From the NCBI RefSeq assembly GCF_024228315.1, contig NZ_CP100455.1, positions 62,001 to 126,000 on the forward strand: 64,000 nucleotides of DNA. The letters are read 5' to 3'. The notes beneath the pieces were generated by a model that worked only from the letters and a program-made list of their open reading frames with translations, did no database searches and had not been told where the DNA came from. Numbering within the stretch: the stretch's first letter is position 1; every line of letters begins with the position of its first letter. Shown here in pieces: positions 30,115-48,318 of the stretch. This DNA is from Halomarina pelagica (lineage in GTDB: Archaea > Halobacteriota > Halobacteria > Halobacteriales > Haloarculaceae). The position numbers and the translations under genes were made by a program.

Positions 30115-30390
30115 GTGCAGGTAGACGTCAACTGCTACGGCGCGATCGGCGAGGCGGTCGGCGGGAAGTCCCACTCGATGACCGTCGAGGAGGGCGCGAC
30201 GGTCAGGACGGTCGTCGCGCGACTCGACGAGCGCGCGCCCGGACTGCTCGACAGGCTCCTCCACGACGACCCCCACCCGCTGGTGGTGATGCGGAACGGG
30301 CGGCACGTCTCCGTCGTGGACGGTAGCGGGACGCGCCTCGAAGACGGCGACACGCTGGCGCTGTCGGACCCGCCGATGCCGGAGGGCTAG
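30115..30390 (+). CDS. MoaD/ThiS-family ubiquitin-like protein, second copy
   Basis: 91 aa from a GTG at 30115; CTCTTTACC lies about 27 bp upstream, matching a leaderless start, and earlier codons fall inside the aldolase gene. The fold is MoaD-like (VQVDVNCYGAIGEAVGG start, GDTLALSDPPM near the end), but the C-terminus is MPEG with a single Gly, not Gly-Gly. It is 44 bp after the aldolase. It may serve the AOR with its partner at 28849. It overlaps the convergent Lut fusion gene by four bases. Confidence 0.75.
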   Translation: MQVDVNCYGAIGEAVGGKSHSMTVEEGATVRTVVARLDERAPGLLDRLLHDDPHPLVVMRNGRHVSVVDGSGTRLEDGDTLALSDPPMPEG

Positions 30391-32588
30391 CGGCCGGGAT
30401 CCAGCAGTTCGACGGGGTGGCGCGTCCCGTCGTCGAACAGCGCGTCCAGTTGCTCGATGCAGGAGGTGCCGCTGGCGACGATCTCCCGGTCCGGGTGGGC
30501 GGCGAACTCGGATTGCAGGTCCCCGCCGACGTCCATGCTGAGTTCGTAGTACTCGGACTTGTAGCCGAACGACCCCGCCATCCCGCAGCACTCGACGGAG
30601 GACGTCACGACGTCGAATCCGAGGTCGTCGAGGACCGCCTCGGTGTAGGCGTCGAGGCCGAGCGTCCGCTGCTGGCAGTGGCTGTGGTACGCGACCGCCT
30701 CGCCGCGGCCGTCGGCGAGTTCCCCCGCGTCGGCCCCCTCGCCCAGCAGGCCGTAGACGTACTCCATCACCTCGTAGCTGGCCTCGCCGAGGCGTTCGAA
30801 TGACGCCTCCGGGAGGAACTTCTCGTACTCCTGACGAAACATGGCGAGGTCGGACGGCTCGATAACGACGACGTCGCGGCCGGCGTCGACGTGTTCGACG
30901 AGGGAGCGGTAGACCTCGCTCGCGCGTTCGCCCGCCGTCGCCACCATCCCCTGAGAGAGCGGCGCGCGGCCGCTCTCCGGCACCTCCGGGATCCGAACGT
31001 GGACGCCGAGCGCCTCCAGCACGCGCACCGCGGCCTTCCCGCGGTCGACCTGCACGTGGTCGGTGTACGGGTCGGCGTAGAGCACCGCCTCGCGGTCGGC
31101 GTCGCCCGCCGGGACGGCAGCGCCCCCGCGGGCGTCGAACCACGCGCGGAGCGTCTGCCGCTCGAATCTCGGCAGGTCGCGCCGGCGGTCGATGCCGAGG
31201 ACGCGCTCCGCGAGCGCCCGCGCGGGGCCGGCGTTCGCCACCCAGTTCGAGAGCGGCGCGGTGGCGCTGCCGAGCCTGGCGACGGTCCCGAAGTTGCCGA
31301 AGAAGCGCTTGCCGAGGTCCATCCCGCCGGGTTCGGCGTCGGGGGTGAGCCCCTCGACCAGCCAGTCGAGTTCGGCGTCCTCGCCGCGGTTGATCCGGTC
31401 GCGGACGACCGTGTTGATCCACGGGATGTCGATCTTGACGGGGCAGGCGTTGACACAGCGACTACAGCCCGTACAGAGGTCGTTGAACTCCGCTGCGCTG
31501 TCGAGGCCGTGGACACCCGCCTCCCAGCCGGTGGCGATGCCGCCCGTGTACGTCTCGCCGCCGAAGGCGTGGCCGCCGACGTGCTGGAAGTTCGCGCACG
31601 TGTTCGCACAGGCTCCACAGCGGATGCAGTAGAGCGTCTCGCGGAGCTGTGGGTCCTCGCGCATCTCCATCCGGCCGTTGTCGACGAGGACGAGGTGGAA
31701 GTCGCGGTCGCCCTCGGCCTCCGACAGGGGAACGTCCGACTCGAAGTCGAGCGGCGGCGAGTCGACAGGCGGCGAGAGCATCGTGAGGTACTGGGGGAAC
31801 TCCTGGCCCGTCGCGGCCCGTCCGATGAGTTCCGTGAAGGGCGCGAGGTCGTCGATGGACGGGAGGATCTTCTCGACGCCGGCGACGGCGACGTGCGTGT
31901 CCGGCGTGACGGCGCTCTTCCGGGCGTTGCCCTCGTTCGTCACGAGCACGACGGTGCCGCTGTCGGCCAGCACGAAGTTCGCGCCGGTCATCCCGACGTC
32001 CGCCTCGACGATGTACTCGAGCAGGTAGTCCCGCGCGAAGTTCGTCAACTCCTCGGCGGTCTCGAGCGGTTCGTCGGGCTCGAAGTGCGCGTTGAACAGC
32101 TCCGCGATGGCCGCCGTCGACTTGTGGAGCGACGGTCCGACGAGGTGCGAGGGGGCCTCGCCGGCCACCTGTATGACGAACTCGCCGAGGTCCGTCTCGT
32201 AGACGTCGACGCCGGCGGTCTCGAGCGCCTCGTTTACCTCCAGTTCTTCGGAGGTCATCGACTTGCTCTTGACGAGCGTCTCCGCGCCCTTCTCGGCGGT
32301 CACCTCCGTGATGTACCGGTTGGCGTCCGCCGCGTCCTCGGCGACGTAGACGGTCCCGCCGTTGGCCTCGACGCTCTCTCTGACCCGGTCTATCAGCTCC
32401 GGGAGGCGCTCGATGGCGTCCTCCTTTATGGCCCGGGCGGCCTCGCGGCTCGCCTCGTAGCGCTCGAACCGCTCGATGGCGTCGTAGCGCTGGCGGTTCA
32501 TGTGGGTGGTGTTCTCCCGGATGGCGTCCCGTTCGGTCTCCAGGAGGTGACGGATCCGCTCCGCCTTGAGCCGTCGCTCTGCGCTCAT
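30387..32588 (-). CDS. LutB-LutA fusion: LUD domain, two [4Fe-4S] clusters, CCG domains
   Basis: 733 aa. Residues about 1-310 form a LUD (LutB-type) domain. Two ferredoxin motifs follow: CIRCGACANTC near 319 and CTGCSRCVNACPV near 371. The C-terminal third is a cysteine-rich LutA/GlpC-type part with SHCQQ, ECCGMAGSFG near 666 and TSC. In bacteria LutA, LutB and LutC are separate proteins that oxidise L-lactate to pyruvate; here A and B activities are on one chain. Start overlaps the stop of lutC (ATGA), so the pair is coupled. Its electron acceptor is unknown. Confidence 0.88.
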   Translation of the reverse strand: MSAERRLKAERIRHLLETERDAIRENTTHMNRQRYDAIERFERYEASREAARAIKEDAIERLPELIDRVRESVEANGGTVYVAEDAADANRYITEVTAEKGAETLVKSKSMTSEELEVNEALETAGVDVYETDLGEFVIQVAGEAPSHLVGPSLHKSTAAIAELFNAHFEPDEPLETAEELTNFARDYLLEYIVEADVGMTGANFVLADSGTVVLVTNEGNARKSAVTPDTHVAVAGVEKILPSIDDLAPFTELIGRAATGQEFPQYLTMLSPPVDSPPLDFESDVPLSEAEGDRDFHLVLVDNGRMEMREDPQLRETLYCIRCGACANTCANFQHVGGHAFGGETYTGGIATGWEAGVHGLDSAAEFNDLCTGCSRCVNACPVKIDIPWINTVVRDRINRGEDAELDWLVEGLTPDAEPGGMDLGKRFFGNFGTVARLGSATAPLSNWVANAGPARALAERVLGIDRRRDLPRFERQTLRAWFDARGGAAVPAGDADREAVLYADPYTDHVQVDRGKAAVRVLEALGVHVRIPEVPESGRAPLSQGMVATAGERASEVYRSLVEHVDAGRDVVVIEPSDLAMFRQEYEKFLPEASFERLGEASYEVMEYVYGLLGEGADAGELADGRGEAVAYHSHCQQRTLGLDAYTEAVLDDLGFDVVTSSVECCGMAGSFGYKSEYYELSMDVGGDLQSEFAAHPDREIVASGTSCIEQLDALFDDGTRHPVELLDPGR

Positions 32589-33094
32589 CGGTCCTCCACG
32601 ACGACGACGTGGACCTGTTTCGGACCGTGGACCCCCGAGACCAGCGCGCCCATGTCGCCGGTGGAACTCGCTCCCGTCGCGAAGACGACGCTCCCGGGTT
32701 CGGCGTCGAACTCCTCCGCCACGCGGTCGAGGCCCGCCTGTACGTCGGCGACGACGTCGCTCTCCCGGACGACGGCGACGTGCCGCTCGGGGTAGAGGCT
32801 CACCGGCTCGGTCCCCTTCGCGTCCGAGGGGATCGCGAGCGTCCCGTAGGAGGCGATGCCCGTCGTGACGCCCGCGACGCCCGTCGTCGCCTCGAGTAGT
32901 TCCGCCGGCGTCGGGTCGACGGTGACGGGGGCGTCGCCGAAGTCGAGTCCCCACTCCGAGAGGTCGGTGGCGACGGCCGGTTCGACGACGGCGTCGGCCA
33001 CCGCGTCGGCGAACCCCTCCGTCGTCGTCCTGGTCCAGCTGGACCCCTGTCGCTGCAACGAGGCTTCGAACTCCGTTCGGGGCTGGGCGGTCAT
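32585..33094 (-). CDS. lutC: LutC-like LUD-domain protein
   Basis: 169 aa with the LUD signature in the second half (VVFATGASSTGDM and VSGVHGPKQVHVVVV). It is the small subunit of a lactate-utilisation type complex and is encoded directly upstream of the LutB/LutA fusion with a four-base overlap. The ATG at 33094 is preferred; a start at 33106 would add four residues. An AT-rich box (AACGTTAACC on the minus strand) is about 27 bp from 33094. Confidence 0.85.
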   Translation of the reverse strand: MTAQPRTEFEASLQRQGSSWTRTTTEGFADAVADAVVEPAVATDLSEWGLDFGDAPVTVDPTPAELLEATTGVAGVTTGIASYGTLAIPSDAKGTEPVSLYPERHVAVVRESDVVADVQAGLDRVAEEFDAEPGSVVFATGASSTGDMGALVSGVHGPKQVHVVVVEDR

Positions 33095-34026: not shown

Positions 34027-35193
34027 ATGCGAATCAGCGAGCTAGAGATCCACGAGTTCACCTACGAACTCGACGACGTGGGAACCCGACACGGCCACCA
34101 GGGGTACGCCCCGGGAGAGACGCTCGAACCGCCGGGATTCGTGCTGACGATACGGACCGCCGACGGCCTCGAGGGCCACTACCGCGGCTTCTACTTCGTC
34201 CCGCCGATGCTGGCGCAGATCCGGATGGCGTCGGCCGACCTGCTCGACCGCGACCCGCTCGAACGCGAGGAGGTCTGGCAGGACCTCTGGAAGGCGCTGC
34301 GTCACCTCGACCACGTCGGGATGGGGCCGATCGACGTCGCGCTGTGGGACCTCGCGGGGAACCACTACGGAGCGTCGGTCGCAGAACTCCTCGGCGGGAC
34401 GAGCGAGCCGGTGCCGGCGTACGCCTCGACGTTCATGGCCGACGACGAGGGCGGGCTGGACTCGCCGGCGGCGTACGCCGACTTCGCCGAGACGTGTCTC
34501 GACGCCGGCTACCCGGCCTACAAGCTGCACGCCTTCGGCGACCCCGATCGGGACGTCGCCGCCTGCCGCGCGGTCGCCGAGCGCGTCGGCGACGAGATGG
34601 ACCTGATGCTCGACCCCGCGAGCGAGTACGACACCTACGCCGACGCCCTCCGGGTCGGGCGCGTTCTCGACGAACTCGACTTCTTCTGGTACGAGGACCC
34701 GATGGCCGACGGCGGCGAGAGCACGGAGATGAACCGCCAGCTCGCCCGCGACCTCGACACGCCCGTCCTCGGCGTCGAACACGTCCGCGGCGGGCCGTTC
34801 ACCCGGGCGAACCACCTCGCCGGCGAGGCGCTCGACCTCGTCCGCGCCGACGCCCACCTCGACGGCGGCATCACCGGCGCGATGAAGATCGCCGCCGTCG
34901 CCGAGTCGTTCGGCCGCGACGTCGAACTCCACGTCGGCGGGCCGGCGCACCTCCACTGTATGAGCGCCATCCGCAACACGAACTACTACGAGCACGGACT
35001 CCTCCACCCGGCGGGCATCGAGTGGATGAGCGCACAGGGGTTCGTCGAGTCCCCCGAGCGGGTGAACGACGACGGCACCGTCCCGATCCCGGACGGTCCC
35101 GGTCTCGGCGTCGAGGTCGACTGGGACTTCGTCGAGGCGCGCCTGACGAACCACGAGGTAATCGACGAACCCCTCGTGAGCGGTCTCGCCTAG
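34027..35193 (+). CDS. Enolase-superfamily enzyme, KxH variant
   Basis: 388 aa. The usual KxK is KLH (about 166-168). The first metal ligand is Asp 196 in MLDPASEYD, then WYEDP, a Glu in GVEHVRGG, and RADAHLDGG; the late histidine is in ELHVGGPAHLH. The only other member with this pattern is the gene at 43544 (KIH, MLDPVGEY, WYEDP, RADPEWDGG), so the two form a distinct subgroup. The chemistry is presumably alpha-proton abstraction from an acid sugar, but with the base pair changed, so the product is hard to predict. Confidence 0.82.
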   Translation: MRISELEIHEFTYELDDVGTRHGHQGYAPGETLEPPGFVLTIRTADGLEGHYRGFYFVPPMLAQIRMASADLLDRDPLEREEVWQDLWKALRHLDHVGMGPIDVALWDLAGNHYGASVAELLGGTSEPVPAYASTFMADDEGGLDSPAAYADFAETCLDAGYPAYKLHAFGDPDRDVAACRAVAERVGDEMDLMLDPASEYDTYADALRVGRVLDELDFFWYEDPMADGGESTEMNRQLARDLDTPVLGVEHVRGGPFTRANHLAGEALDLVRADAHLDGGITGAMKIAAVAESFGRDVELHVGGPAHLHCMSAIRNTNYYEHGLLHPAGIEWMSAQGFVESPERVNDDGTVPIPDGPGLGVEVDWDFVEARLTNHEVIDEPLVSGLA

Positions 35194-35329
35194 CGCGAGC
35201 GGCCCGCCGGTATCCCCCGAGGACGCCGAACGCCGGCGTCACGTCGAGCCCCGGTCGATCGGAACCCTCGCCGCGGCCGCCCTCGGCGGCGAAGCCCTCC
35301 TCGCCGCCTCGCTACCGGGCCGCCCGGAC
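35194..35329. other. Intergenic region between convergent genes
   Basis: 136 bp of GC-rich DNA between the enolase-superfamily gene and the small membrane protein. It contains a GC-rich imperfect stem (around 35270-35295) that could act in termination. Nothing else is recognised. Confidence 0.3.
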
Positions 35330-35599
35330 TCAGAGCCTCGACCGCCGCGAGCGCACCCGGTAGCCGCCGTAGCCGAGCGCGATCGCGGCGACGACGCCGA
35401 AGATCAGCGCGTAGAACGTCTCTGCGGTGTTCGGCCAGACGCCCTCGGTGAAGAAGAAGTAGCCGGCGAGGAGCAGGGTGCCGACGCCGACCAGCCAGGC
35501 CGGCCACGCCCCCGTGGCGGTTCGCAACCAGCTCTCCTCGGGCGCGGGGGTCGGCCCGCCCCCGCTCTCGTCCCGTTCGCGGATCGGGTGATCGTCCAT
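35330..35599 (-). CDS. Small two-helix membrane protein
   Basis: 89 aa from ATG 35599; a longer frame to 35638 is less likely because an AT-rich box (CAGTAATTCC on the minus strand) sits between the two. A hydrophilic, Pro/Glu-rich N-terminus is followed by hydrophobic segments at about residues 32-50 and 61-79 and a basic tail (RVRSRRSRL), indicating both ends face the cytoplasm. I do not recognise a family. It may be a haloarchaeal housekeeping membrane protein unrelated to the pathways. Confidence 0.65.
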   Translation of the reverse strand: MDDHPIRERDESGGGPTPAPEESWLRTATGAWPAWLVGVGTLLLAGYFFFTEGVWPNTAETFYALIFGVVAAIALGYGGYRVRSRRSRL

Positions 35600-35690
35600 G
35601 ATCGGATCGCCTCGGGGAATTACTGTCAGCCGAGCCACTAATAGCTAGGGGTCCGGGCGGTGGGCGGCGTCGGCGTCCGTCCCGACCGCC

Positions 35691-36953
35691 TCAGATCGGC
35701 TCGAGCGGCTCCTGTCCGGGGGCCGTGTGCGCTTCGAGCACGTCGAAGTCGAGTTCGAGTCCCAGTCCGGGGTCCTCCGGCACCTGAATCTCGCCGTTCT
35801 CGATGAGCGGCGACCCCGTGTGGAGGTCGTCCCACCACGCGACCTCGCGGGCGTGCCACTCCAGCGCGAACGCGTTCGGGACGGTGGCGCAGGCGTGGAC
35901 GCCCGCGAGCGTGCCGACCGGACTGGAGATGTTGTGCGGCGCGGTGGGAACGTCGAAGGCGTCGGCGACCGTCGCGATCTTGCGGAACTCCGAGAGGCCG
36001 CCGCACTTCTGGATGTCCGGGGCGACGACGTCGACGGCCTGGTCGGTCAGGAACGGCAGGAACCCCTCGACGCGGGTGAGGTTCTCGCCCGCGAGGATGG
36101 GCGTGCTCGTGCTCTCGGTCACCTTCCGGTGGGCGTCGACGCTCTCCGGCGGGACGGGGTCCTCCAGCCAGTCGAGGGCGTACTCCTCGACGCCGCGGGC
36201 GATCTTGATCGCCGTCTCGATGGTGAAGTTCCAGTGGAGGTCGAAGCCGAGCGTCGGGTCGGAGCCCACCTCCTCGCGGACGGCGTCGACGATGGCGATC
36301 TTGTGCTGGATGGCCTCGTTCGAGAGGCGGCGGGTCGCGGTGTCGGCGTCCGCTATCCTGACGTCGAGGTCGAACTTCAGGGCGTCGAACCCCTCGTCGA
36401 TCACCTCGCGGGCGACGGCGGCGTACGACTCCGGCGCGTAGACCTCCCGCGGGTCGGCCTCGGTCGCCGCCGCGAGGTTCTCGCCGGCGTGGCAGTCGGC
36501 GTATATCCGGACGGCGTCGCGGTACTTCCCGCCGAGGAGCTGGTAGATCGGAAGCCCGGTGACCTTGCCCGCGACGTCCCACAGCGCGATCTCGATGCCG
36601 CTCACCGCCGCCTGCGAGTAGCCGAGCGACCCGCCCAGCCCGGAGACGAGCTGCGTCATGTGCTCGACGAGGCGGTCCACGTCGAGGGGGTTCTGTCCGA
36701 CCAGCCCCGGCTTCAGGAACTCGACGTACTCGCCTGCCGGACCGGGGAACGCTTCCCCGAGCCCGTACTCGCCCGCGTCCGTCTCCACCCTGATGATGTT
36801 CCACGGGAAGTTGCCCTCGACGACGACGCACCTCACGTCCGTTATCTCGACGTCGCGGTCGGGGGCGCGCCGGAGGCCGTCGGCACGGAGGTCGCGCCAC
36901 CCGACGCCGCCGATCATGTCCGCCACTAACTGCCGGTATTTGGACTCTCGCAT
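35691..36953 (-). CDS. Enolase-superfamily dehydratase, gluconate/xylonate/galactonate-dehydratase-like
   Basis: 420 aa with an N-terminal extension of about 35 residues. The catalytic segment reads KFD (about 193-195), and the metal Asp stands in GFDLHWNF (Asp 238), followed by WLEDP, AGENLT, VAPDIQKCGG and APHNISSP. KFD with DLHW is the pattern I associate with archaeal D-gluconate, D-xylonate and D-arabinonate dehydratases. It should form a 2-keto-3-deoxy aldonate. The start codon (ATG 36953) is only about 15 bp from the end of the tnpB element, so its own promoter has probably been displaced. Confidence 0.82.
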   Translation of the reverse strand: MRESKYRQLVADMIGGVGWRDLRADGLRRAPDRDVEITDVRCVVVEGNFPWNIIRVETDAGEYGLGEAFPGPAGEYVEFLKPGLVGQNPLDVDRLVEHMTQLVSGLGGSLGYSQAAVSGIEIALWDVAGKVTGLPIYQLLGGKYRDAVRIYADCHAGENLAAATEADPREVYAPESYAAVAREVIDEGFDALKFDLDVRIADADTATRRLSNEAIQHKIAIVDAVREEVGSDPTLGFDLHWNFTIETAIKIARGVEEYALDWLEDPVPPESVDAHRKVTESTSTPILAGENLTRVEGFLPFLTDQAVDVVAPDIQKCGGLSEFRKIATVADAFDVPTAPHNISSPVGTLAGVHACATVPNAFALEWHAREVAWWDDLHTGSPLIENGEIQVPEDPGLGLELDFDVLEAHTAPGQEPLEPI

Positions 36954-37054
36954 GCGCTTCGACGCTCTTGACATCCTCCCCGCCCTGAAGGGGCGGGGAT
37001 TCCTCGCGTTGGGGGTCTCGGCTCATGCCGAACCACCCCGCGAGCGACATTCCC

Positions 37055-38326
<1,272 letters not shown>

Positions 38327-38350
38327 CAACATCTCGTACAACCCGAACGT

Positions 38351-38364
38351 ACATAAGTGTATGT
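38351..38364. promoter_or_regulatory. Palindromic TATA region shared by tnpB and the small gene
   Basis: ACATA-AGTG-TATGT is a perfect 5-bp dyad located 22-32 bp from both start codons (38326 minus, 38380 plus). One bidirectional promoter, possibly bound by the ribbon-helix-helix-like protein encoded alongside, is a reasonable reading. Confidence 0.4.
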
Positions 38365-38379
38365 GTTCTGTAGGTGAGT

Positions 38380-38517
38380 ATGGGACGAACGCTACACATC
38401 AAGGTTGATGATGACCAATACGAGTGGCTATCTACCGTGAAAGAACAACGCGGCCTCACGTGGCGCGGGATGTTAATCCACGCCGCCGAAGATTTGGAGA
38501 TCTCGGATAGGCAATAG
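38380..38517 (+). CDS. Small ribbon-helix-helix-like protein inside the tnpB element
   Basis: 45 aa. The start [10 protein letters not shown] is followed by two amphipathic helices, [13 protein letters not shown] and [14 protein letters not shown], the layout of MetJ/Arc/CopG DNA-binding proteins. It lies inside the element, divergent from tnpB and sharing its promoter region. Comparable short genes accompany tnpB in other haloarchaea, to my recollection. It may control tnpB expression; a toxin-antitoxin role is not supported, since no toxin gene is present. Confidence 0.65.
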
Positions 38518-38702
38518 TCGGCGGTTGTTCGGCAGTGCCTATCGCTTAGACCCCGCCCTAAAGGGCGAGGCTTCCGATTGCTATACGTCAGCGACGGACA
38601 AATACGCTCCGACCGCCCGTCGCAGGGGGACGCTCGCCGCCTCGGGGGCCGGTGGCCGTCCGGGGGGACGGCCGACCGAAGGAGCAACGTGTCCCGCCCG
38701 AC
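38518..38702. other. Left end of the element and intergenic DNA
   Basis: The first 50-60 bp are element DNA, including the left-end hairpin. From about 38585 onward is GC-rich host DNA downstream of the E2 gene (stop at 38703). No gene or clear terminator is seen. Confidence 0.4.
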
Positions 38703-40052
38703 TCAGAGTCGCGCCAGGAGCAGGTCGGGGTCCTCGATGCTCCCGATGACGTGATCGGCGAACTCGGAGGCGGTGACGCCGTCGACGAGCCGGTGGTCGT
38801 ACGACAGCGACAGGTGGAGTTGCTCGCGCACCGCCACCTCGCCGTCGACGGCGACCGGCTCCTCGCGGATGCGCCCGAGGCCCAGGATGGCCGCCTCCGG
38901 GTGGTTGATGATCGGCGTCCCGAACGTCCCGTTCTCGCTGTGGCTCCCCACGTTCGTCACCGTGAACGTGCTCCCGCGGAGCTGTTCGGGTGCCAGGGAG
39001 CGCTCCCGCGCGCCCTCCGCGAGGGCGTCGAGTTCCTCGGCCACCTCGACGAGCGACTTCTGGTCGACGTCGCGGACGACGGGGACGAGCAGGCCGTCCT
39101 CGGTGTGGGTGGCGACGCCGAGGTCGTAGCGGCGCTTCTCGACGATCTCCTCGCCCTCGATGCTCGCGTTCAGGAGGGGGAACGCCTTCAGCGCGGGAAC
39201 GACGGCCTTGAGCACCATTGCCGTGTAGGAGATACGCGCGTCGTGCTTCTCGTTCAGCCGCTCGCGGAGCGTCACGAACTCGACCGCGTCGGCGCGGAAG
39301 CCCGAGGTGACGTGCGGTATCTCGGCGGTCGAGCGGACCATGTTGTCGGCGATGGCCCGCCGCAGCCCCCGCAGCGGACGGCGCGTCTCGCGCTCGCCGG
39401 ACGACTCGGTCCCGACATCGGTCGACGCGGGGTCCCGCGACTCGTCGCCCCCGGCCGCCCGGCGCGTCTCGCCGTCGCGGTGGGCCTCGACGTCGGCGCG
39501 GAGCACCCGCCCGCCGGGGCCGGTCCCCTCGACGGTCGGGAGGTCGACGCCGACCTCGCGGGCGTACCGCCGCGTGCTCGGGGCCGCGAACACCCGAGCG
39601 TCGTCGTCGCTCTCGACGGTCCCACCGCCGACCGCGGTCGTCCCGTCGGTCGCGTCCGTCCCCTCCGTCCCGTCGGTACCGGCGACCTCGGCTCCGGCCG
39701 CCGACTTCGCGACCTCGTCGGCGGGTTCAGCGGCGGCTCCGGCGGCGGACTCGACGTCGCCCGACGCGGCGGCGTCGGCGCTCCGCTCCCGCCGTCGCTC
39801 CCGCGGGGGGTCGTCCGTCTCGAAGACGGCGACGACCTCGCCGACGGCGACGACCTCGCCGGGGTCCCCGCGCCGCGCGTCGAGCGTCCCGTCGCAGGGG
39901 GCCGGTATCTCGACGACCGCCTTGTCCGTCTCGACGTCGACGAGGGGGTCGTCCTCGGCGACGTCGTCGCCGGGGGCGACGTGCCACTCGACGATCTCGG
40001 CCTCGGTCAGCCCCTCGCCGGGGTCCGGGAGGGGGAACTCGTACCGCGTCAT
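38703..40052 (-). CDS. Dihydrolipoamide acyltransferase (E2) of a 2-oxoacid dehydrogenase complex
   Basis: 449 aa. A lipoyl domain with the modified Lys in VETDKAVVE near residue 44 is followed by a long Ala/Gly/Asp/Glu-rich linker, a peripheral subunit-binding domain ([15 protein letters not shown] near 155-170), and the catalytic domain ending with [18 protein letters not shown], where the His and Asp act. It transfers the acyl group from E1 to CoA. It is the last gene of an E1alpha-E1beta-E2 operon. No E3 gene follows, so E3 must come from elsewhere. Confidence 0.92.
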
Positions 40053-40106
40053 CGCCGCCTCCGGGCGGGCGTTCGTCGGCTCGGTTCGGCTCGTTCGGGG
40101 TGGGGG

Positions 40107-41120
40107 TCAGAACTCATAGGACATCACCGCCTTGATGGCGTGTTCGGCCCGCTCGGCGTCGGGCAGGTAGGCGTCTTCGGTCTGGTGGCCGGGGAAGTGG
40201 ACGTCGAAGCCGGTCGCGCGCTTTATCGGCGCGTGGAGGTGATCGAGCGCGTACTCGTTCACCAGCGCCGATAGCTCCGCGCCGAGGCCGAGCGTGCGCC
40301 GCGCCTCGTGGAGGACGACACACCGGCCGGTCCGCTTCACCGAGTCGAGCACCGTCTCGACGTCCAGCGGCGACAGCGACACGAGGTCGATGATCTCGAC
40401 GTCGGCGTCGACGCGGTCGGCCGCCGTCTCGGCGTGCCGGAGCATCGCGCCCCACGTCAGGACCGTCACGTCCTCGCCCTCGCGGACGACTCGCGCCTCG
40501 TCGATCGGCAGGACGTACTCGTCGGTCGGGACCGCCTCGCGCTCGCCCCGGTAGATCTTCTTGGGCTCGAGGAACATCACGGGGTCCGGGTGCCGGATGC
40601 TCGCCGCGAGCAGCCCCTTGGTCTGGGCGGGGGTGCTCGGACAGACCACCCTGACGCCCGGCGTGTGCGCGAAGTACGTCTCGGTGGACTCAGAGTGGTA
40701 CTCGCTCGACTTGATGCCGCCCCCGTAGGGGACGCGGACCGTCATCGGCAACTCCAGGCCGCCGCCGGAGCGCTCGTGGAGTTTGACCAGCGAGTACATG
40801 AACTGGCCGAACGCGGGGTAGAAGAAGCCCATGAACTGGATCTCGGGCACCACGCGCTCGCCCCGCACGGCCATCCCGACGGCGGTGCCGAGGATGCCGC
40901 CCTCCGACAGGGGCGTGTCTATGACGCGGTCCGCGCCGAACTCCTCGTACAGGCCCTCGGTGGCGCGGTAGACGCCGCCGATGGGCCCCATGTCGTAGCC
41001 GAGCAGGCGGACCGAGTCGTCTCTGCGCATCTCCTGTCCCAGCGTCTCGCGGACGGCCTCGACGACGTTCCACGACTCGGTGTCGCTCGCGACGTCGGCG
41101 GCCGCGTCGCCGCGGCTCAT
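40107..41120 (-). CDS. 2-oxoacid dehydrogenase E1 beta subunit
   Basis: 337 aa. Typical E1 beta features include RVIDTPLSEGGILGTAVGMA near 65 and YHSESTETYFAHTPG near 140, and the C-terminal transketolase-like domain with DLVSLSPLD and HEARRT near 270-280. It pairs with E1 alpha to decarboxylate a 2-oxo acid with thiamine diphosphate. The start at 41120 overlaps the E1 alpha stop by four bases. The open frame extends further upstream but only in antisense of nothing useful within E1 alpha. Confidence 0.92.
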   Translation of the reverse strand: MSRGDAAADVASDTESWNVVEAVRETLGQEMRRDDSVRLLGYDMGPIGGVYRATEGLYEEFGADRVIDTPLSEGGILGTAVGMAVRGERVVPEIQFMGFFYPAFGQFMYSLVKLHERSGGGLELPMTVRVPYGGGIKSSEYHSESTETYFAHTPGVRVVCPSTPAQTKGLLAASIRHPDPVMFLEPKKIYRGEREAVPTDEYVLPIDEARVVREGEDVTVLTWGAMLRHAETAADRVDADVEIIDLVSLSPLDVETVLDSVKRTGRCVVLHEARRTLGLGAELSALVNEYALDHLHAPIKRATGFDVHFPGHQTEDAYLPDAERAEHAIKAVMSYEF

Positions 41121-42247
41121 TCGAACCCCTCCCCGTCGAAGTCGACGAAGGGGTTCTCCCCCGCCAGTTCGCGCCGCAGTTCGGCGCGCTGGTGGCGTTC
41201 GGTCCACGACTCGCCGTGGAGGTGGTGGTCGAACATCCGCTGGGGGTCCGACTCGGGCACCGCTCGCGCGGCGGCGACGGCCTCGTCGACGGCCGCCTCG
41301 GCCTCTTCGGCGACGCGGGAGGCGGCCTCGTCGTCCAGTACCCCCTCCGCCCGGAGGTACGCCTCGAACCGGTCGACCGGGTCGAGTTCGGCCCACCGCT
41401 CCAGTTCGGTCTCGTCGCGGTAGACGCTGTCCTCGTCGGCGGTGTTGTGGTCGACCATCCGGTAGGTGACGCACTCGAGGAGCGTCGGTCCCTCCCCGCC
41501 CCGCGCGCGATCGACCGCCTCGCGCGTCTTCTCGTACACCGCGAGGACGTCGTTGCCGTCGACGCGGTCGTGGGGGACGCCGTGGGCCTCGGCCTTCTGG
41601 GCGAACGTCTCCGCGGCGGTCTGGCGGTGGGTCGGCACGGAGATGGCCCACTGGTTGTTGTGACAGATCGTCACGGCGGGGGCCTCGAAGACGCCCGCGA
41701 AGTTCAGCGCCTCGTGGAAGTCGCCCTCGCTCGTCGACCCGTCGCCGACGTACGACATCGTCACAGTGTCCCGGTCGTTGAACCGGTCGGCCATCGCCGA
41801 CCCGACGGCGTTGGTCACGTTCACCGTCAGCGGGACGTACGGCGGCGAGAAGTTCACCGCCGGTTCCCCCTCCTCATCGAGGTGTTCGGCCGTCGTCTCC
41901 GGTTCCGTACCCATGAGGCCGGCGAACGCCTTCGCGAGCGAAGCGTCCCAGTAGACCATCGCGGCGGTCTGTCGGTAGGTGGGGAAACACCAGTCGCCCG
42001 GTTCGAGCGCCGCCGCGGTCCCGATGGGGACGGCCTCCTCGCCCACCGACGCGGCGTGGATGCTTATCTCGCCCCGTCTCTGCAACCGGAGGGCCTTCTC
42101 GTCGAAGGCGCGACTCCGGACGAACGCCCAGTACATCCGTCGGAGCGTCCCCTCGTCGACGTCGGGCGGATCGCGAATCGGGCTGCCGTCCGGGTCGAGC
42201 ACTCGGTAGAAGTCCTCCCGCGGGCGAACCTCCGTCCAGTAGGACAT
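41117..42247 (-). CDS. 2-oxoacid dehydrogenase E1 alpha subunit
   Basis: 376 aa. The thiamine diphosphate motif GDGSTSEGDFHEALNFAG lies near residues 165-180, ending in the NNQWAIS segment near 192. The region RMVDHNTADEDSVYR near 263 corresponds to the regulatory loop that binds E1 beta. Archaeal complexes of this type accept branched-chain or other 2-oxo acids; pyruvate in haloarchaea usually goes through a ferredoxin enzyme. It could use a 2-oxo acid produced by the aldolases around it. First gene of the operon, with a TATA box 27 bp upstream. Confidence 0.92.
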   Translation of the reverse strand: MSYWTEVRPREDFYRVLDPDGSPIRDPPDVDEGTLRRMYWAFVRSRAFDEKALRLQRRGEISIHAASVGEEAVPIGTAAALEPGDWCFPTYRQTAAMVYWDASLAKAFAGLMGTEPETTAEHLDEEGEPAVNFSPPYVPLTVNVTNAVGSAMADRFNDRDTVTMSYVGDGSTSEGDFHEALNFAGVFEAPAVTICHNNQWAISVPTHRQTAAETFAQKAEAHGVPHDRVDGNDVLAVYEKTREAVDRARGGEGPTLLECVTYRMVDHNTADEDSVYRDETELERWAELDPVDRFEAYLRAEGVLDDEAASRVAEEAEAAVDEAVAAARAVPESDPQRMFDHHLHGESWTERHQRAELRRELAGENPFVDFDGEGFE

Positions 42248-42344
42248 GGTAGGCGAGACGGAGCGTACCGTTGAAAATTTTTGGGTACGGGCGACGACGA
42301 CGCCGAGTTTTTAGGGGGTACGCCCCCTGGTCGAAGTGATCCGA
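42248..42344. promoter_or_regulatory. Divergent promoter region, E1alpha / MFS, with dyad over a TATA box
   Basis: The dyad CGTACC (42264-42269) and GGTACG (42284-42289) spans the AT-rich box AAAATTTTT (42273-42282) that lies about 27 bp from the E1 alpha start at 42247. The box GAGTTTTTAG (42305-42314) serves the MFS gene. The dyad would let a regulator block the E1 alpha promoter. Confidence 0.45.
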
Positions 42345-43547
42345 ATGCGACTGGAGACCAACGACCGCGCGGTGCTCTCGCTGACGATGCTCGGCCACGC
42401 GATGGTCCACACCTACGAACTCTCGGTGCCGCTCCTGCTCCCCCTGTGGATGGCGGAGTTCGACGCGACCGCGGCGACCGTCGGCCTCGTCGCCGGGGCC
42501 GGCTACGTGCTCTTCGGACTCGGCGCGCTGCCGGGCGGCGTCCTCGCGGACGCCCTCGGTCGACGGCCGCTCATCGTCGCCTGTCTCGTCGGCATGGGGG
42601 CGTCCTTCCTCCTGTTGAGCGTCGCGCCCACGCTGCCGTTCGTCGCGCTCGCGCTCGTCTGCTGGGGGCTGGCCGCCAGCGTCTACCATCCCGCGGGACT
42701 GTCGCTCATCAGTACCGGCGTCGAGGAGCGGGGCACCGGCTTCGCCTACCACGGCATGGCCGGCAACCTCGGCATCGCCGTCGGTCCCTTCGCGATGGCG
42801 CTGCTCCTCGTCGCCGTCGACTGGCGGACGGCGGTCGCGATCCTGGCGGTTCCGGCGCTCGTCGCCGCGGCCCTCGGCCTCCGCGTCGACGTCGACGAGA
42901 CCGCCGCCGTGCAGGCCGACGGTGGGCACGCCCCGCCGACGGATCTCGGGACGTTCCGCGAGCACTCGGTGCGACTGTTCGCCGGCGGCTTCGCGCTCGT
43001 CTTCCTCGTCGTCGCCGTCGACGGCCTGTTCTACCGCGGGATACTGACCTTCCTCCCCAGCCTGCTCGCGGACTCCGTCCCGACGGTGTCGCTCACCGGC
43101 GCGGACGTCGCCGGGTCGCGCTACGTCTACGCCGGTGTACTGATGGTCGGTCTGGTCGGCCAGTACGCCGGCGGGCGGCTCACCGATCGCGGCGACGTAG
43201 AGCGGGTACTGGCGCTCGATCTGGTCGCCCTCGCCGTCCTCGCGCTGCTGTTCGTCCCCGCCGCGAACGCCGGTCTGCTCGCGCTTCTCGCGGTGAGCGC
43301 GGCGCTCTCCGTGGTGCTGTTCGGCGAACAGCCCCTCTTGCAGGCGACCGTGGCCGAACACTCCGATCCGGGGCTCCGCGGACTGTCCTACGGCTTCATG
43401 TACATCGGCACGTTCGGCGTCGGCGCGGTCGGCGCGGCGGTCGCCGGCGCGATACTCACCTACGCCGACCGGGCGACGCTGTTCGCCGTCCTCGCCGCAG
43501 TCGCGCTGTTCGGCGCGGGGGTGGGGTTCCTCCTCGCCCGTCGCTAG
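42345..43547 (+). CDS. MFS transporter
   Basis: 400 aa from ATG 42345; a GTG at 42336 would add three residues and has equally good box spacing. Twelve hydrophobic segments with the loop GGVLADALGRRPLI near residue 63 mark the MFS fold. It imports or exports a small organic compound. It is divergent from the 2-oxoacid dehydrogenase operon and converges with the KxH enolase gene, overlapping its stop by four bases. Its group differs from the two related carriers at 11979 and 54625. Confidence 0.87.
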   Translation: MRLETNDRAVLSLTMLGHAMVHTYELSVPLLLPLWMAEFDATAATVGLVAGAGYVLFGLGALPGGVLADALGRRPLIVACLVGMGASFLLLSVAPTLPFVALALVCWGLAASVYHPAGLSLISTGVEERGTGFAYHGMAGNLGIAVGPFAMALLLVAVDWRTAVAILAVPALVAAALGLRVDVDETAAVQADGGHAPPTDLGTFREHSVRLFAGGFALVFLVVAVDGLFYRGILTFLPSLLADSVPTVSLTGADVAGSRYVYAGVLMVGLVGQYAGGRLTDRGDVERVLALDLVALAVLALLFVPAANAGLLALLAVSAALSVVLFGEQPLLQATVAEHSDPGLRGLSYGFMYIGTFGVGAVGAAVAGAILTYADRATLFAVLAAVALFGAGVGFLLARR

Positions 43548-44716
43548 TCGTAGACGCGCCCGCCGAGCGCGTTCTCCTCGACGTAGTCCCAGTCGTAGGT
43601 GACGCCGAGGCCCGGCCCGGTCTGGACCGACACGTGTCCGTCGTCGACCTCGTCCACGGCGTCCGTGTAGCCGTCGAGGTAGACCGGCGACTCGACGTGG
43701 GGCGTCCCGAAGTCCGGGCCGACGAGCCCGAGTTCGTAGTAGTTGGCGTTGCGGGTCGCCGCCATCAGCTGCCGCTGGACGGGTCCGGCGAGGTGGTACT
43801 CCACGTCGAGTCCGAACCCCTCGGCGACGCGGGCGATCTTCGTCGCGCCGGTGACGCCGCCGTCCCACTCGGGGTCGGCGCGGGCGAAGTCGGTCGCCTC
43901 GGTCGCCAGGAAGTCCGCGTGGGGCTCCAGTCCCCGCACCAGCTCGGTCATCAGGAGCGGCGTCTCCAGTCGCTGGCGGAGCTTCCGGCTGGCGTGTTGC
44001 GATCGAGTGGCCCCCCGGAGCGGGTCCTCGTACCAGAGGAACCCCTGTTCGTCGCAGGCCTTCCCCACCGTCAACGCGTCGGCGAACGTGTGGTACTCGC
44101 CGACGGGGTCGAGCATGAGGTCCATCTCGTCGCCGACGCGCTCGCCGACCGCGCGGACGATCGCCACCTCGCGGTCGACGTCCCTGTCGTCGAGCCCACC
44201 GATCGGGTGTATCTTGAACGCCCCGACGCCGCGGTCGAGACACGTCTCGGCGAAGTCGGCGTACGCGTCCGGCGAGTCCAGCCCGCCCGCCTCGCTCCCG
44301 AAGTAGGTCGAGACGTAGACCGGAAACCGCCGGCGGTAGGTGCCGAGCAGGTCGTGGATGGGGGCGTCGTGGTACTTCCCCGCGAAATCCCACAGCGCGA
44401 TGTCGAGCGGACCGATGCCCATCCGGTCGTACTTGCGGAGGGCGCGTTTCATCTCCGACCAGTGTTTCTCGCGGTGGAGCGGGTTCTTCCCGACGAGGTA
44501 GTCCGCGACCAGGTTCACCTGCGCGAACGCGGGGGAGTTGCCGCCGACGTACTCGCCGGTCACCCCCGCGTCGGTGTGGACGCGGATCCCGTAGGTGACC
44601 ATCTCCCGCGTCCGCCCGGGTTCGTAGACGGCGTCGAACCCGTGGGGGTTCGTGGTGACGTTCTCCAGCGGGTAGGTGAACTCGGTCGTCTCGATCCGTG
44701 TGACCGTCGGTGCCAT
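43544..44716 (-). CDS. Enolase-superfamily enzyme, KxH variant (paralog of 34027)
   Basis: 390 aa. Catalytic segment KIH (about 168-170), Asp in MLDPVGEYH, WYEDPLRG, Glu in MTELVRGL, RADPEWDGG, and EYHLAGPVQRQ. These features match the gene at 34027 and no other paralog, and both share a long segment around RNxNYYE near residue 325. It lies 46 bp downstream of the enolase-superfamily gene at 44763 on the same strand, so the two may be co-transcribed and act in one pathway. Substrate unknown. Confidence 0.83.
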   Translation of the reverse strand: MAPTVTRIETTEFTYPLENVTTNPHGFDAVYEPGRTREMVTYGIRVHTDAGVTGEYVGGNSPAFAQVNLVADYLVGKNPLHREKHWSEMKRALRKYDRMGIGPLDIALWDFAGKYHDAPIHDLLGTYRRRFPVYVSTYFGSEAGGLDSPDAYADFAETCLDRGVGAFKIHPIGGLDDRDVDREVAIVRAVGERVGDEMDLMLDPVGEYHTFADALTVGKACDEQGFLWYEDPLRGATRSQHASRKLRQRLETPLLMTELVRGLEPHADFLATEATDFARADPEWDGGVTGATKIARVAEGFGLDVEYHLAGPVQRQLMAATRNANYYELGLVGPDFGTPHVESPVYLDGYTDAVDEVDDGHVSVQTGPGLGVTYDWDYVEENALGGRVYD

Positions 44717-44762: not shown

Positions 44763-45851
44763 TCACCCGTCGATTCTGTGGGCCTCGCGGGCGTCGGGGT
44801 CGATCCGACAGCCGTGGCCTGGTTCCGCCGGGAGGACGACGCGGCCGTCGCGGACGGTCGGTCCCGAGGCGAGAAGCGGCGAGGCGTCGTACTCGGGGAT
44901 GTACTCGGCGTACAGGCCGTTCGGGGCGGCGCTGACGAGGTGGGCGCTGACGGCGTAGTTGACGTGCGGCGCGAACGCGACGCCGCGGCTCTCGGCGAGG
45001 CTGGCGACCGCCCGGAGTCCCGTGACGCCGCCGCCGCGGATCAGGTCCGGCTGGGCGACGTCGACGGCGTCGGCGTCGAGCAGGTAGCGCAGTCGCTCCG
45101 GGCGGTAGAACATCTCGCCGGACGCGACGGGGACCGTCGCCGCCGCCGCGACCCGGCGGTAGCCGTCGACGTCGAACTCCGAGACGGGTTCCTCGACCCA
45201 GCCGACGTCCCGTTCGGCGAGCGCCGCGACCGCCCGCCGGGCCTCCGCGACGGTCCACGCCTGGTTGGCGTCGACGAGGATCTCGACGTCGGGACCGAGC
45301 GCCTCCCGGAGCGCGTCGACGCGGTCGAGGTCCGCCTCGAGCGACCGCGCGCCGACCTTCGTCTTGAACGCCGTGAACCCGCGGTCCGCCTGCTCCGCGT
45401 GTCGCTCGACGAGCGTCTCCAGGTCGTCGCCGGCGTCGAGGCGCGAGCAGTAGGCGGGGACCTCCCGGTCCTCGCCGCCGAGCAACCGGTAGAGCGGGAC
45501 GCCCGCCCGCTGTGCCTTGACGTCCCAGCAGGCGACGTCGATGGCAGAGCGGGGGTGCGCAGAGAACCCGAGTTCGCCCGGGTAGTAGAGCGTCCGCTCG
45601 CGCATCGCCGCGCGTAATTCCTCGGTGGCGAAGGGGTCAGCGCCGACCAGCAGGTCCGAGAACTCCCGCGCGTAGCGCGCCAGCAGGTCGGGGACCCGCC
45701 AGGTGCTGATCCACCCGGTGCCCGTCAGGCCCGCGTCGGTGTCGAGTTCGACGACGACCCAGTAGCGCTCCGTGACCGACGCCCGCGCGTCGCCGAGTTC
45801 CGACTCAAGCGGCGCGCGGAGCGCGTCGACGCGAACGTCGGTTATCTCCAC
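44763..45851 (-). CDS. Enolase-superfamily (mandelate racemase type) enzyme, paralog of 783
   Basis: 362 aa with KTK (163-165), VDANQAW, WVEEP, ASGEMF, QPDLIRGGG and APHVNYAVSAH. It is very close in length and motifs to the gene at 783, including the RSAIDVACWD and the VEYIPEYD-type segments near the C-terminus, so the pair looks like a duplication kept for related substrates. It lies between an amidase gene (upstream, gap 37 bp) and the KxH paralog. Start ATG 45851. Confidence 0.85.
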   Translation of the reverse strand: MEITDVRVDALRAPLESELGDARASVTERYWVVVELDTDAGLTGTGWISTWRVPDLLARYAREFSDLLVGADPFATEELRAAMRERTLYYPGELGFSAHPRSAIDVACWDVKAQRAGVPLYRLLGGEDREVPAYCSRLDAGDDLETLVERHAEQADRGFTAFKTKVGARSLEADLDRVDALREALGPDVEILVDANQAWTVAEARRAVAALAERDVGWVEEPVSEFDVDGYRRVAAAATVPVASGEMFYRPERLRYLLDADAVDVAQPDLIRGGGVTGLRAVASLAESRGVAFAPHVNYAVSAHLVSAAPNGLYAEYIPEYDASPLLASGPTVRDGRVVLPAEPGHGCRIDPDAREAHRIDG

Positions 45852-45888: not shown

Positions 45889-47328
45889 TCATCGGGGGTA
45901 GGTGTCGGCCCACGGTCTGACGCGCTCGAACGCCGCGCTCGCCGCCAGGACGTCGTCGTCGGCGTGGCGCTGCCCGACCACCTGCATCCCGACGGGGAGC
46001 CCGTCGTCGGTCAGTCCGGCGGGGACCGACGCGACGGGGTGCCCGGAGAAGTTGAACGGCTGGGTGAGGAGCCACCCGCGTAGCGGCTCGACCTCGACGC
46101 CGTTCACGCTCGTCGGGTGCTCGCCGTGCGGGAACGGCGGCACGGCCGCGGTGGGCGTGAGGAGCAGGTCGTACGCCGCGAGGAGGGCCCGGATCCCGTC
46201 GTAGACCCGCGTTCGGACCCGTTGCGCGGCGGCGTACTCGCGGGTCGTCACCCCGTCGCTCTCGAGGATCGTCTCGACGGTGACCGGGCGGAGCAGGTCG
46301 CGGTCCTCGCCGTAGGGGTCGAGGCCCTGCCGTTCCAGCCCGTCGAAGAGGCCCTCCCAGCGGACTTTCGCGAACGTGTAGAAGGCGTTCAGGATCGCGT
46401 CCTGATCGACCCCGAGGTCCGGATCGACGCGCTCGACGGACGCGCCGGCGTCCTCGAAGGCGTCGGCGGCGTCCTCGACGACCTCCTCGACGGTCGGTTC
46501 GACGGGGTAGCCCCCGAGGTCGGGGCTGTAGGCTATCGAGCGGCCGTCGACGCCGCGCTCGGTCGCGGCGAGGTAGTCGCCGGGGTCGTCGGGGAGCGAG
46601 AAGGGGTCCGCCGGGTGCTGGCCCGCCATCACGTCGAGCATGAGCGCGGCGTCCTCGACGGTGCGCGCCATCGGCCCGACGTGCGAGAACGGCGTCCCCG
46701 CCTCGAAGGCGTCCGGACGGCTCACGCGGGGGACGCGCCCGAACGACGGCTTCAGGCCGTAGACGCCGCAGAACGCCGCGGGCGTCCGGATGGACCCGCC
46801 CGTGTCCGACCCCTGCGCCAGCGGGGCCATCCCGGCGGCCAGGGCCGCCCCCGCGCCGCCGGAGGAGCCGCCGGCGTTCAGCCCGGGCGCGAACGGCGTC
46901 GACGTCGGTCCGGCGACGAGGTTGTCCGTCGTACAGCCGAGCCCGAACTCGGGCGTGTTCGTCTTTCCGACGACGACGGCCCCGGCGTCGAGCAGTCGAT
47001 CCACGAACGGTTCGTTCTCCTCGGCGACGTTGTCCTCGAACAGGCGCGACCCGAACGTCGTCCGGACGCCCGCGATCCCGTCCAGGTCCTTGATCGCGAC
47101 GGGGACGCCGTGGAGCGGGCCGAGGTCGTCGCCCGCTTCGACGGCGCGTTCGGCCGCCCTGGCGGCCTCGCGCGCTCGCTCCTCGGTGACGGTGACGTAG
47201 GCGTTGACCTCGCCGTCGCGGTCCGCGATGCGGTCTATGTGCGCCTCCACCACCTCGACGGGTGACAGCGACCCGTCCCGGATCCGTCTCGCCAGCTCGA
47301 CCGCCGACGCGTACCACAGGTCTGACAT
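45889..47328 (-). CDS. Amidase signature family protein
   Basis: 479 aa. The Ser-Ser-Lys catalytic set is visible: Lys in VAIKDL near residue 78, Ser in GGSSGGAGAAL near 152 and the nucleophile Ser in DTGGSIRTPA near 175. Amidase-signature enzymes hydrolyse amides of carboxylic acids; GatA of tRNA amidotransferase is a relative but is usually with gatB or gatC, absent here. It may release an acid from an amide for the enolase-superfamily enzymes encoded just downstream. Start ATG 47328. Confidence 0.88.
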   Translation of the reverse strand: MSDLWYASAVELARRIRDGSLSPVEVVEAHIDRIADRDGEVNAYVTVTEERAREAARAAERAVEAGDDLGPLHGVPVAIKDLDGIAGVRTTFGSRLFEDNVAEENEPFVDRLLDAGAVVVGKTNTPEFGLGCTTDNLVAGPTSTPFAPGLNAGGSSGGAGAALAAGMAPLAQGSDTGGSIRTPAAFCGVYGLKPSFGRVPRVSRPDAFEAGTPFSHVGPMARTVEDAALMLDVMAGQHPADPFSLPDDPGDYLAATERGVDGRSIAYSPDLGGYPVEPTVEEVVEDAADAFEDAGASVERVDPDLGVDQDAILNAFYTFAKVRWEGLFDGLERQGLDPYGEDRDLLRPVTVETILESDGVTTREYAAAQRVRTRVYDGIRALLAAYDLLLTPTAAVPPFPHGEHPTSVNGVEVEPLRGWLLTQPFNFSGHPVASVPAGLTDDGLPVGMQVVGQRHADDDVLAASAAFERVRPWADTYPR

Positions 47329-48166: not shown

Positions 48167-48318
48167 GCCCGTCCCACTCACGAACCGACGGCAAAGCCCT
48201 TTGGGTCGCTCACCCGACGGCGAGCGCGTCACGACGATGCGTCAGACAGTGTCAGGCATACACTTAACACGTGTCGGGTCGGACGTGGGAGCGTTCCGGA
48301 TCCGTCCGAGCGATCACC
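48167..48318. promoter_or_regulatory. Divergent promoter region, HpaI aldolase / DapA
   Basis: Besides the minus-strand box near 48193, a plus-strand box (CATACACTTAAC, about 48257-48268) lies some 50 bp before ATG 48319, so this gene may have a leader of about 30 nt. CAGACAGTGTCAG (48243-48255) differs by one base from a sequence in the inverted repeat at 59850-59862. Confidence 0.35.

What the first reader, a model, noticed from the sequence alone, without database searches (positions are those of the whole stretch)
34027..44716. Two KxH enolase-superfamily members form an unassigned subgroup
The genes at 34027 and 43544 replace the second Lys of KxK by His (KLH, KIH), share MLDPxxEY, WYEDP, RADxxxDGG and an RNxNYYE block, and keep the late His. 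A His-based second residue would change which face of the substrate is deprotonated. I cannot match this pattern to a characterised function.
Basis: partly seen in the sequence, partly recalled or inferred. Interest (0 to 1): 0.55.

Follow-up and report, generated by a model that had tools for sequence, protein, structure and literature searches.

The report
Histidine-based sugar-acid dehydratases in haloarchaea
Two genes of a salt-loving archaeon encode enzymes that probably remove water from sugar acids, and both carry a histidine where most relatives carry a catalytic lysine; the swap is fixed across a widespread but little-tested branch of a well-known enzyme superfamily.

Summary
Enzyme A (34027-35193, +) and enzyme B (43544-44716, -) are intact enolase-superfamily proteins with KLH and KIH where neighbouring paralogues have KxK. 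KxH is invariant in 88 of 88 distinct homologues, as are the three metal ligands. It is not unique to this window: 108 of 292 genomes of its class carry relatives, as do SAR202/Dehalococcoidia and Proteobacteria. The nearest solved structures also have KLH: 1rvk and 4hch, the latter titled D-glucarate dehydratase. "Unassigned subgroup" is therefore only partly right. A and B lie in different clades, so one shared substrate is unlikely. A subclade beside A has lost both dyad residues yet keeps KFH under purifying selection, suggesting the strand-2 His alone can suffice. Best reading: Mg-dependent acid-sugar dehydratases feeding aldolases, with B in a putative aldolase-amidase-racemase-like-KxH operon. 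Substrates are unknown.

The parts
34027..35193 (+). Enzyme A, KxH enolase-superfamily protein (388 aa)
   Evidence: AlphaFold2 model pLDDT 94.3
34522..34530 (+). KLH of A (K166-L167-H168), end of barrel strand 2
   Evidence: invariant K and H in 88 of 88 homologues; strand 164-167 in model
34612..34614 (+). A metal ligand D196
   Evidence: 88 of 88
34693..34695 (+). A metal ligand E223
   Evidence: 88 of 88
34777..34779 (+). A metal ligand E251
   Evidence: 88 of 88
34849..34851 (+). A dyad Asp D275
   Evidence: 80 of 88
34930..34932 (+). A dyad ('late') His H302
   Evidence: 83 of 88
34972..34992 (+). A RNTNYYE block (316-322)
   Evidence: E322 88 of 88
43544..44716 (-). Enzyme B, KxH enolase-superfamily protein (390 aa)
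   Evidence: AlphaFold2 model pLDDT 92.7
44207..44215 (-). KIH of B (K168-I169-H170)
44108..44110 (-). B metal ligand D203
44027..44029 (-). B metal ligand E230
43943..43945 (-). B metal ligand E258
43874..43876 (-). B dyad Asp D281
43793..43795 (-). B dyad ('late') His H308
44763..45851 (-). Mandelate-racemase-like paralogue with canonical KTK, directly upstream of B (46 bp gap)
45889..47328 (-). Amidase, next upstream in the putative B operon
   Evidence: Pfam PF01425
47390..48232 (-). HpcH/HpaI aldolase, first gene of the putative B operon
   Evidence: Pfam PF03328

Best explanation
A and B are Mg2+-dependent acid-sugar dehydratases of the mandelate-racemase-like part of the enolase superfamily. 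Three carboxylates (A: D196/E223/E251) bind Mg2+, which holds the substrate carboxylate; K166 helps stabilise the enolate; H168 at the end of strand 2 replaces the usual second Lys as base on that face; the D275-H302 dyad on the other face acts as general acid that expels the 3-OH (or the two swap roles, depending on the sugar acid). The product, a 2-keto-3-deoxy acid, goes to a neighbouring HpcH/HpaI- or DHDPS-type aldolase or an oxidative branch. B probably works in one transcript with an amidase, a KTK paralogue and an aldolase. Shown: residue conservation, gene order, predicted fold. Inferred: residue roles, reaction and operon. Unknown: substrates; A and B probably differ.
For: KxH and metal ligands 88 of 88; dyad Asp 80 and His 83 of 88. 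AlphaFold2 models put KxH at the end of strand 2 and D275/H302 (B: D281/H308) at the ends of later strands. Best structural match for both is 4hch, titled D-glucarate dehydratase (A: Z 48.7, rmsd 1.9, 368 aligned; next non-1rvk entry Z 42.2; B: Z 47.4, rmsd 2.0, 373 aligned). Downstream enzymes: in L122 the HpcH aldolase overlaps the end of the KxH gene by 4 bases in my gene call, in L075 it follows by 168 bp; HpcH lies within 8 genes in 5 of 8 clade C loci and 2 of 5 clade B loci, the window among them. In the widest haloarchaeal clade, within 8 genes in 27 loci: FAH-type 10, aldehyde dehydrogenase 10, SDR 10, Gfo6 9, Amidohydro_2 5 (each gene cluster named from one scanned representative). 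B's gene order amidase-KTK paralogue-KxH recurs in Haladaptatus at 76, 70 and 74% identity. Dyad-less, KxH-keeping enzymes beside A have dN/dS 0.06-0.19 in 10 of 10 pairs among themselves.
Against: I found no reported activity for a haloarchaeal or SAR202 member in the searches made. Clade A contexts are not conserved: of 10 places, SDR cluster genes lie near 2 (a third place, L094, has an SDR by Pfam), Amidohydro_2 near 1, HpcH near 1 (the window itself), and FAH, Gfo6 and AldDH near none. An amidase is near only 2 of 5 clade B loci, and it does not fit a plain sugar-acid route. The context of the wide clade need not apply to A or B. Racemases share the same residue layout.
Confidence: 0.6

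Rival explanations
1. A and/or B are racemases or 2-epimerases of hydroxy acids: strand-2 His and the Asp-His dyad exchange the alpha proton between both faces without loss of water.
For: A base is present on each face, as in mandelate racemase (dyad intact in A and B; mandelate racemase is among the structural matches). D-2-hydroxyacid dehydrogenase genes lie near several KxH loci, and an Ldh_2 gene lies in the window and in Haladaptatus. A characterised enolase-type fuconate dehydratase also partitions to 2-epimerisation on D-arabinonate (PMC6336799, passages).
Against: The closest solved relative with a functional title is called a dehydratase; the dyad-less subclade cannot do two-base racemisation with these residues; aldolase pairing fits a 2-keto-3-deoxy product.
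Confidence: 0.2
2. A and/or B are D-glucarate (aldarate) dehydratases, the same function as given to Agrobacterium 4hch.
For: Nearest solved homologue with the same KLH, crystallised with L-tartrate.
Against: 35% (A) and 27-28% (B) identity; 1rvk has Gly where A and B have the dyad Asp, and plasmid proteins with its motifs form a separate clade; TIGR03247 glucarate dehydratase scores 28.5 (A) and 24.1 (B) against a cut-off of 828.7. The 4hch assignment is a title; I found no paper behind it (only 20 of 330 titles seen).
Confidence: 0.12
3. The subfamily consists of 6-deoxyhexonate/pentonate dehydratases (L-fuconate, L-rhamnonate, D-arabinonate, D-ribonate type), and A and B keep that specificity.
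For: In the wide clade (27 loci), the cluster annotated L-rhamnose mutarotase lies near 3, lactonase-type Amidohydro_2 near 5, nucleoside hydrolase near 7, Gfo6 near 9; alpha-L-fucosidase and mutarotase in Halostagnicola. Salinigranum (L014), in clade A, has Amidohydro_2 and an SDR on either side. A cultured SAR202 strain grows better with fucose, rhamnose and their acids (PMC10444878, passages), and other SAR202 genomes carry this subfamily.
Against: Among the 20 window proteins scanned there is no Amidohydro_2, Gfo6, FAH or mutarotase, though an SMP-30-type lactonase lies at 57019. Five of the 27 loci (L082-L086) are one genus, so the counts are not independent.
Confidence: 0.25

Closest known systems
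Agrobacterium tumefaciens AGR_L_2751, PDB 1rvk/4hcd/4hch/4hcl/4mmw (4hch titled D-glucarate dehydratase)
   Same: KLH on strand 2, same fold (Z 48.7 A, 47.4 B), retained late His, related KNCRWYE block
   Different: Dyad Asp is Gly; proteins with its motifs form a separate clade; 35% and 27-28% identity
Mandelate racemase / mandelate-racemase-like acid-sugar dehydratases (e.g. L-talarate/galactarate dehydratase 2pp0)
   Same: Domains, metal ligands, Asp-His dyad, first Lys of KxK
   Different: Second Lys is His
Haloarchaeal xylonate-dehydratase type (xac-cluster protein, Haloprofundus L137:19790-21028)
   Same: Superfamily, haloarchaeal sugar-acid context
   Different: KFD plus DxH on strand 3; 26% (A) and 28% (B) identity; it is instead 49% identical to the window's 35691 protein
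SAR202 COG4948 paralogue expansion (PMC6946804, PMC10444878; passages read)
   Same: Members of the same KxH family occur in SAR202/Dehalococcoidia genomes
   Different: The passages I saw treat COG4948 as a whole; none of them mentions KxH
3-Methylaspartate ammonia lyase (H194/K331)
   Same: A His in an enolase-superfamily active site that contacts the enolate (PMC7241714, passages)
   Different: There K331 is the base and H194 stabilises the enolate; that H194 sits on strand 2 is recalled, not tested here

Membership tests
Enolase superfamily, mandelate-racemase-like | MR_MLE_N and MR_MLE_C domains | tested here: met
   PF13378 and PF02746 above gathering score for A and B
Enolase superfamily, mandelate-racemase-like | Three carboxylate metal ligands on strands 3-5 | tested here: met
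   D196/E223/E251 and D203/E230/E258, 88 of 88
Enolase superfamily, mandelate-racemase-like | KxK at the end of strand 2 | tested here: not met
   KLH / KIH; K and H invariant in 88 of 88. That KxK defines the subgroup is recalled
Enolase superfamily, mandelate-racemase-like | Asp-His dyad on strands 6 and 7 | tested here: met
   D275/H302 and D281/H308
1rvk/4hch KxH group | KLH on strand 2 | tested here: met
   KLH in A, KIH in B
1rvk/4hch KxH group | Gly in place of the dyad Asp; same clade | tested here: not met
   A and B have Asp; they branch away from L129-L131 and from L097, L099, L100, L132 (1rvk itself was not in the tree)
1rvk/4hch KxH group | D-glucarate dehydratase activity | not testable with these tools
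   needs enzyme assay
Glucarate dehydratase TIGR03247 | Score above curated cut-off 828.7 | tested here: not met
   28.5 (A) and 24.1 (B) bits
L-talarate/galactarate dehydratase NF047820 | Score above curated cut-off 500 | tested here: not met
   104.3 (A) and 102.6 (B) bits
Haloarchaeal xylonate dehydratase (XacD) | Close identity to, and motifs of, the xac-cluster protein | tested here: not met
   26-28% identity; KFD/DxH against KxH. Tested on a Haloprofundus protein beside xacR; the Haloferax XacD sequence itself was not available
L-rhamnonate dehydratase of Haloferax volcanii (rhc pathway, recalled) or L-fuconate dehydratase | Identity to the characterised enzyme | not tested
   the H. 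volcanii plasmid record is not held under the accessions tried; it could belong to the wide KxH clade

The most novel reading that the evidence does not exclude
The KxH family is a separate catalytic class within the superfamily: the strand-2 His is the obligate base throughout, while the Asp-His dyad is optional. The 1rvk branch lost the Asp, the KFH subclade beside enzyme A lost both dyad residues, yet these one-base enzymes still work. Haloarchaea, SAR202 and Proteobacteria share this class, and each clade has taken a different sugar acid.
Probability: 0.35. Interest if true: 0.55.

Novelty: new variant of a known kind. Interest (0 to 1): 0.4.

Why it matters
The enolase superfamily is a standard case of how one active-site scaffold is retuned for many reactions, and the second Lys of KxK is one of its best-known catalytic residues (recalled). 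A large family in which it is always His, with natural members that lack the opposite base, gives a ready-made test of which residue does the chemistry. The same family lies in the SAR202 enolase expansion, whose substrates are an open question in ocean carbon cycling, and haloarchaeal proteins would be another route to them.

Tried and rejected
Considered and rejected. (1) A or B as the haloarchaeal xylonate dehydratase: the xac-cluster protein has KFD and 26-28% identity. (2) Chance KxH: rejected, invariant in 88 of 88 and confined to 4 of 17 paralogues aligned. (3) One shared function for A and B: unlikely, separate clades. (4) A clear substrate for A from gene context: failed, because its clade shows no conserved neighbours. 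(5) Literature for a KxH enolase or for the 1rvk/4hch function: searches found nothing; one search found 330 papers holding at least one of the four PDB codes, and the 20 listed are unrelated by title; the other 310 were not seen. The library holds open-access papers only. (6) Side-chain distances in the models could not be measured: model coordinates are not in the script box.

Weak points. Gene calls in fetched loci come from my own script, so some starts and small genes will be wrong. Neighbour genes were clustered by BLAST and each cluster named from one scanned or annotated member; not every member was scanned. In one search the anchor gene could be another enolase, so I use the counts, anchored on KxH genes only. 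From I dropped L091 (the same place as L013), L088 (its KxH gene was not called by my script) and L098 (no anchor). There is no control for how often such genes lie near other enolases in these islands. Sequences in the 88-row alignment were chosen by similarity to A or B, not by motif. dN/dS between the dyad-less enzymes and A or L044 is higher, 0.38-0.56, but A against L044, both with the dyad, is also 0.52, and high GC makes these long-distance values rough.
Full report
Observation. The window (70% GC, haloarchaeal, G000:C2:62001-126000) carries enzyme A at 34027-35193 (+, 388 aa) and enzyme B at 43544-44716 (-, 390 aa). Both match the enolase-superfamily domains PF13378 and PF02746. Aligned with paralogues in the same window, KLH/KIH occupies the KTK position. 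Among 17 distinct enolase-superfamily proteins of this genome that I aligned, 4 have KxH, and these are the four members of one family: A, B and two copies outside the window. The own-genome search reported 23 matching places in all.

Conservation. I collected homologues with more than 150 bits to A or B from the loci then at hand, 109 genes giving 88 distinct sequences, without regard to motif. K166 and H168 are invariant in 88 of 88; so are the metal ligands D196, E223 and E251 and the residues R273, E300 and E322. The dyad Asp is kept in 80 of 88 (5 Ser, 3 Gly) and the dyad His in 83 of 88 (5 Leu). Relatives occur in 108 of 292 genomes of the window's class at E <= 1e-50, 37 of 77 genera, and with B as query in 101 of 292 at E <= 1e-80. 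In a separate scan of public genomes, 31 loci encoded relatives; 20 of these were at 42-61% identity: Natronomonas aquatica, Salinigranum, SAR202/Chloroflexi/Dehalococcoidia, Proteobacteria and one unclassified bacterium; the other 11 were at 23-30%.

Phylogeny. A FastTree tree of 94 sequences, rooted on three proteobacterial plasmid proteins with 1rvk's motifs (L129-L131), separates a haloarchaeal clade with those motifs, a clade with A, bacterial groups, a clade with B, and wide haloarchaeal clades; B and A are not sisters. Some internal nodes are weak (support below 0.7), including parts of clade A and the node that joins clade B to the wide clades. The outgroup and the haloarchaeal 1rvk-like clade keep KLH and the late His but have Gly for the dyad Asp.

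A natural variant. Five members beside A (L013, L046, L048, L049, L050; motif KFH) have lost both dyad residues (Ser and Leu) but keep KxH and the metal ligands. All are open reading frames, and the 10 pairwise dN/dS values among them lie between 0.06 and 0.19, so they look functional. If so, the strand-2 His is the only remaining His of the usual acid-base positions in them.

Structure. AlphaFold2 models of A (pLDDT 94.3) and B (92.7) show the barrel, with KxH at the end of strand 164-167 (A) or 166-169 (B). The best structural match is 4hch, titled 'D-glucarate dehydratase from Agrobacterium tumefaciens complexed with magnesium and L-tartrate': A, Z 48.7, rmsd 1.9, 368 aligned, 35%; B, Z 47.4, rmsd 2.0, 373 aligned, 27%; 1rvk follows, and the next entries are at Z 42.2 (A) and 41.8 (B). 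By sequence profile the 1rvk group scores 348 bits and the next entry 163. The PDB sequences of the group carry KLH and the late His. I found no paper for these entries (nothing; only 20 of 330 titles seen).

Mechanism. In mandelate racemase Lys166 and the His-Asp dyad serve opposite faces (recalled; the titles of 1mns and 1mra name Lys166 and D270N). KxH sits where Lys166 sits, so the swap changes the chemical nature of the base on that face, not the face. A and B keep both sides, so either can be base or acid. A His in an enolase-superfamily active site has a parallel in methylaspartate ammonia lyase, where H194 is described as stabilising the enolate and K331 as base (PMC7241714, passages).

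Gene context. B ends a run of four minus-strand genes: HpcH/HpaI aldolase (47390-48232), amidase (45889-47328), KTK paralogue (44763-45851) and B, with gaps of 61, 37 and 46 bp (from the coordinates; families). Amidase-KTK paralogue-KxH recurs in Haladaptatus sp. DYSN1 at 76, 70 and 74% identity; of the 5 clade B loci, 2 have an amidase nearby, the window and this one. Close relatives of the KTK paralogue occur in only 4 of 292 genomes; of the three other than this one, two have a KxH gene within the 20 kb fetched (L139, L140) and one does not (L141), and all three are nearer to the window's second KTK protein at 783. A has no conserved partners: of 10 places, SDR cluster genes are near 2, Amidohydro_2 near 1 and HpcH near 1; one more, L094, has an SDR by Pfam. 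In the widest clade (27 loci, five of them one genus) FAH-type genes lie within 8 genes in 10, aldehyde dehydrogenases in 10 (the scanned one is of the 2,5-dioxovalerate type), SDR in 10, Gfo6 in 9, nucleoside hydrolases in 7, Amidohydro_2 in 5 and L-rhamnose mutarotase in 3. Haloprofundus, Haloarcula and Halostagnicola records show the same kinds of gene with annotated names. These point to oxidative, non-phosphorylating sugar routes with a 2-keto-3-deoxy acid. In one locus (L122) the HpcH aldolase overlaps the end of the KxH gene by 4 bases in my gene call. For SAR202, papers report up to 75-80 enolase paralogues and better growth of one strain with fucose, rhamnose and their acids (PMC6946804 and PMC10444878, passages).

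What it is not. No NCBIfam equivalog reaches its cut-off for A or B; the best scores are 104 bits, against cut-offs of 500 (A) and 311 (B). The xac-cluster xylonate-dehydratase-type protein has KFD and is instead close to the window's 35691 protein, 49%. The characterised Haloferax volcanii rhamnonate dehydratase (recalled) could not be compared and might belong to the wide clade.

Verdict. This is a widespread KxH branch of mandelate-racemase-like proteins, probably acid-sugar dehydratases, for which I found no reported assay and only a solved, titled but distant relative. The two window proteins belong to different clades within it and probably have different substrates.

Noticed in passing
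L013:8001-9146, L046:1501-2646, L048:1513-2658, L049, L050:1498-2646: Relatives of A with KFH but Ser/Leu in place of the dyad Asp/His; purifying selection among themselves (dN/dS 0.06-0.19).
   Followed up: yes
G000:C2 36884-142370 (window inside): 23 enolase-superfamily places in one genome, 17 of them on this stretch of contig C2; an expansion reminiscent of SAR202.
   Followed up: partly
35691-36974 (-): Enolase-superfamily protein with KFD and DLH, 49% to the xac-cluster xylonate-dehydratase-type protein of Haloprofundus.
   Followed up: partly
49277-50500 (+): Enolase-superfamily protein with KVK but, in my alignment, no Glu where the third metal ligand is expected, and no PF02746 hit at the threshold used. 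May be a misalignment.
   Followed up: no
37055-38341 (-): TnpB-family RNA-guided nuclease gene (NF040570) between the two KxH genes.
   Followed up: no
38703-42247 (-): 2-oxoacid dehydrogenase E1-alpha and E2 genes inside the sugar-acid island; the ORF between them reads like an E1-beta but was not scanned.
   Followed up: no
L073 and L112: Haladaptatus plasmid and an unnamed haloarchaeal contig share many island genes with the window in rearranged order, as if the catabolic island were reshuffled between replicons.
   Followed up: partly
27150-28823 (+) and 30387-32954 (-): Aldehyde:ferredoxin oxidoreductase, and a LUD-domain/Fe-S protein, beside the aldolase at 29271.
   Followed up: no
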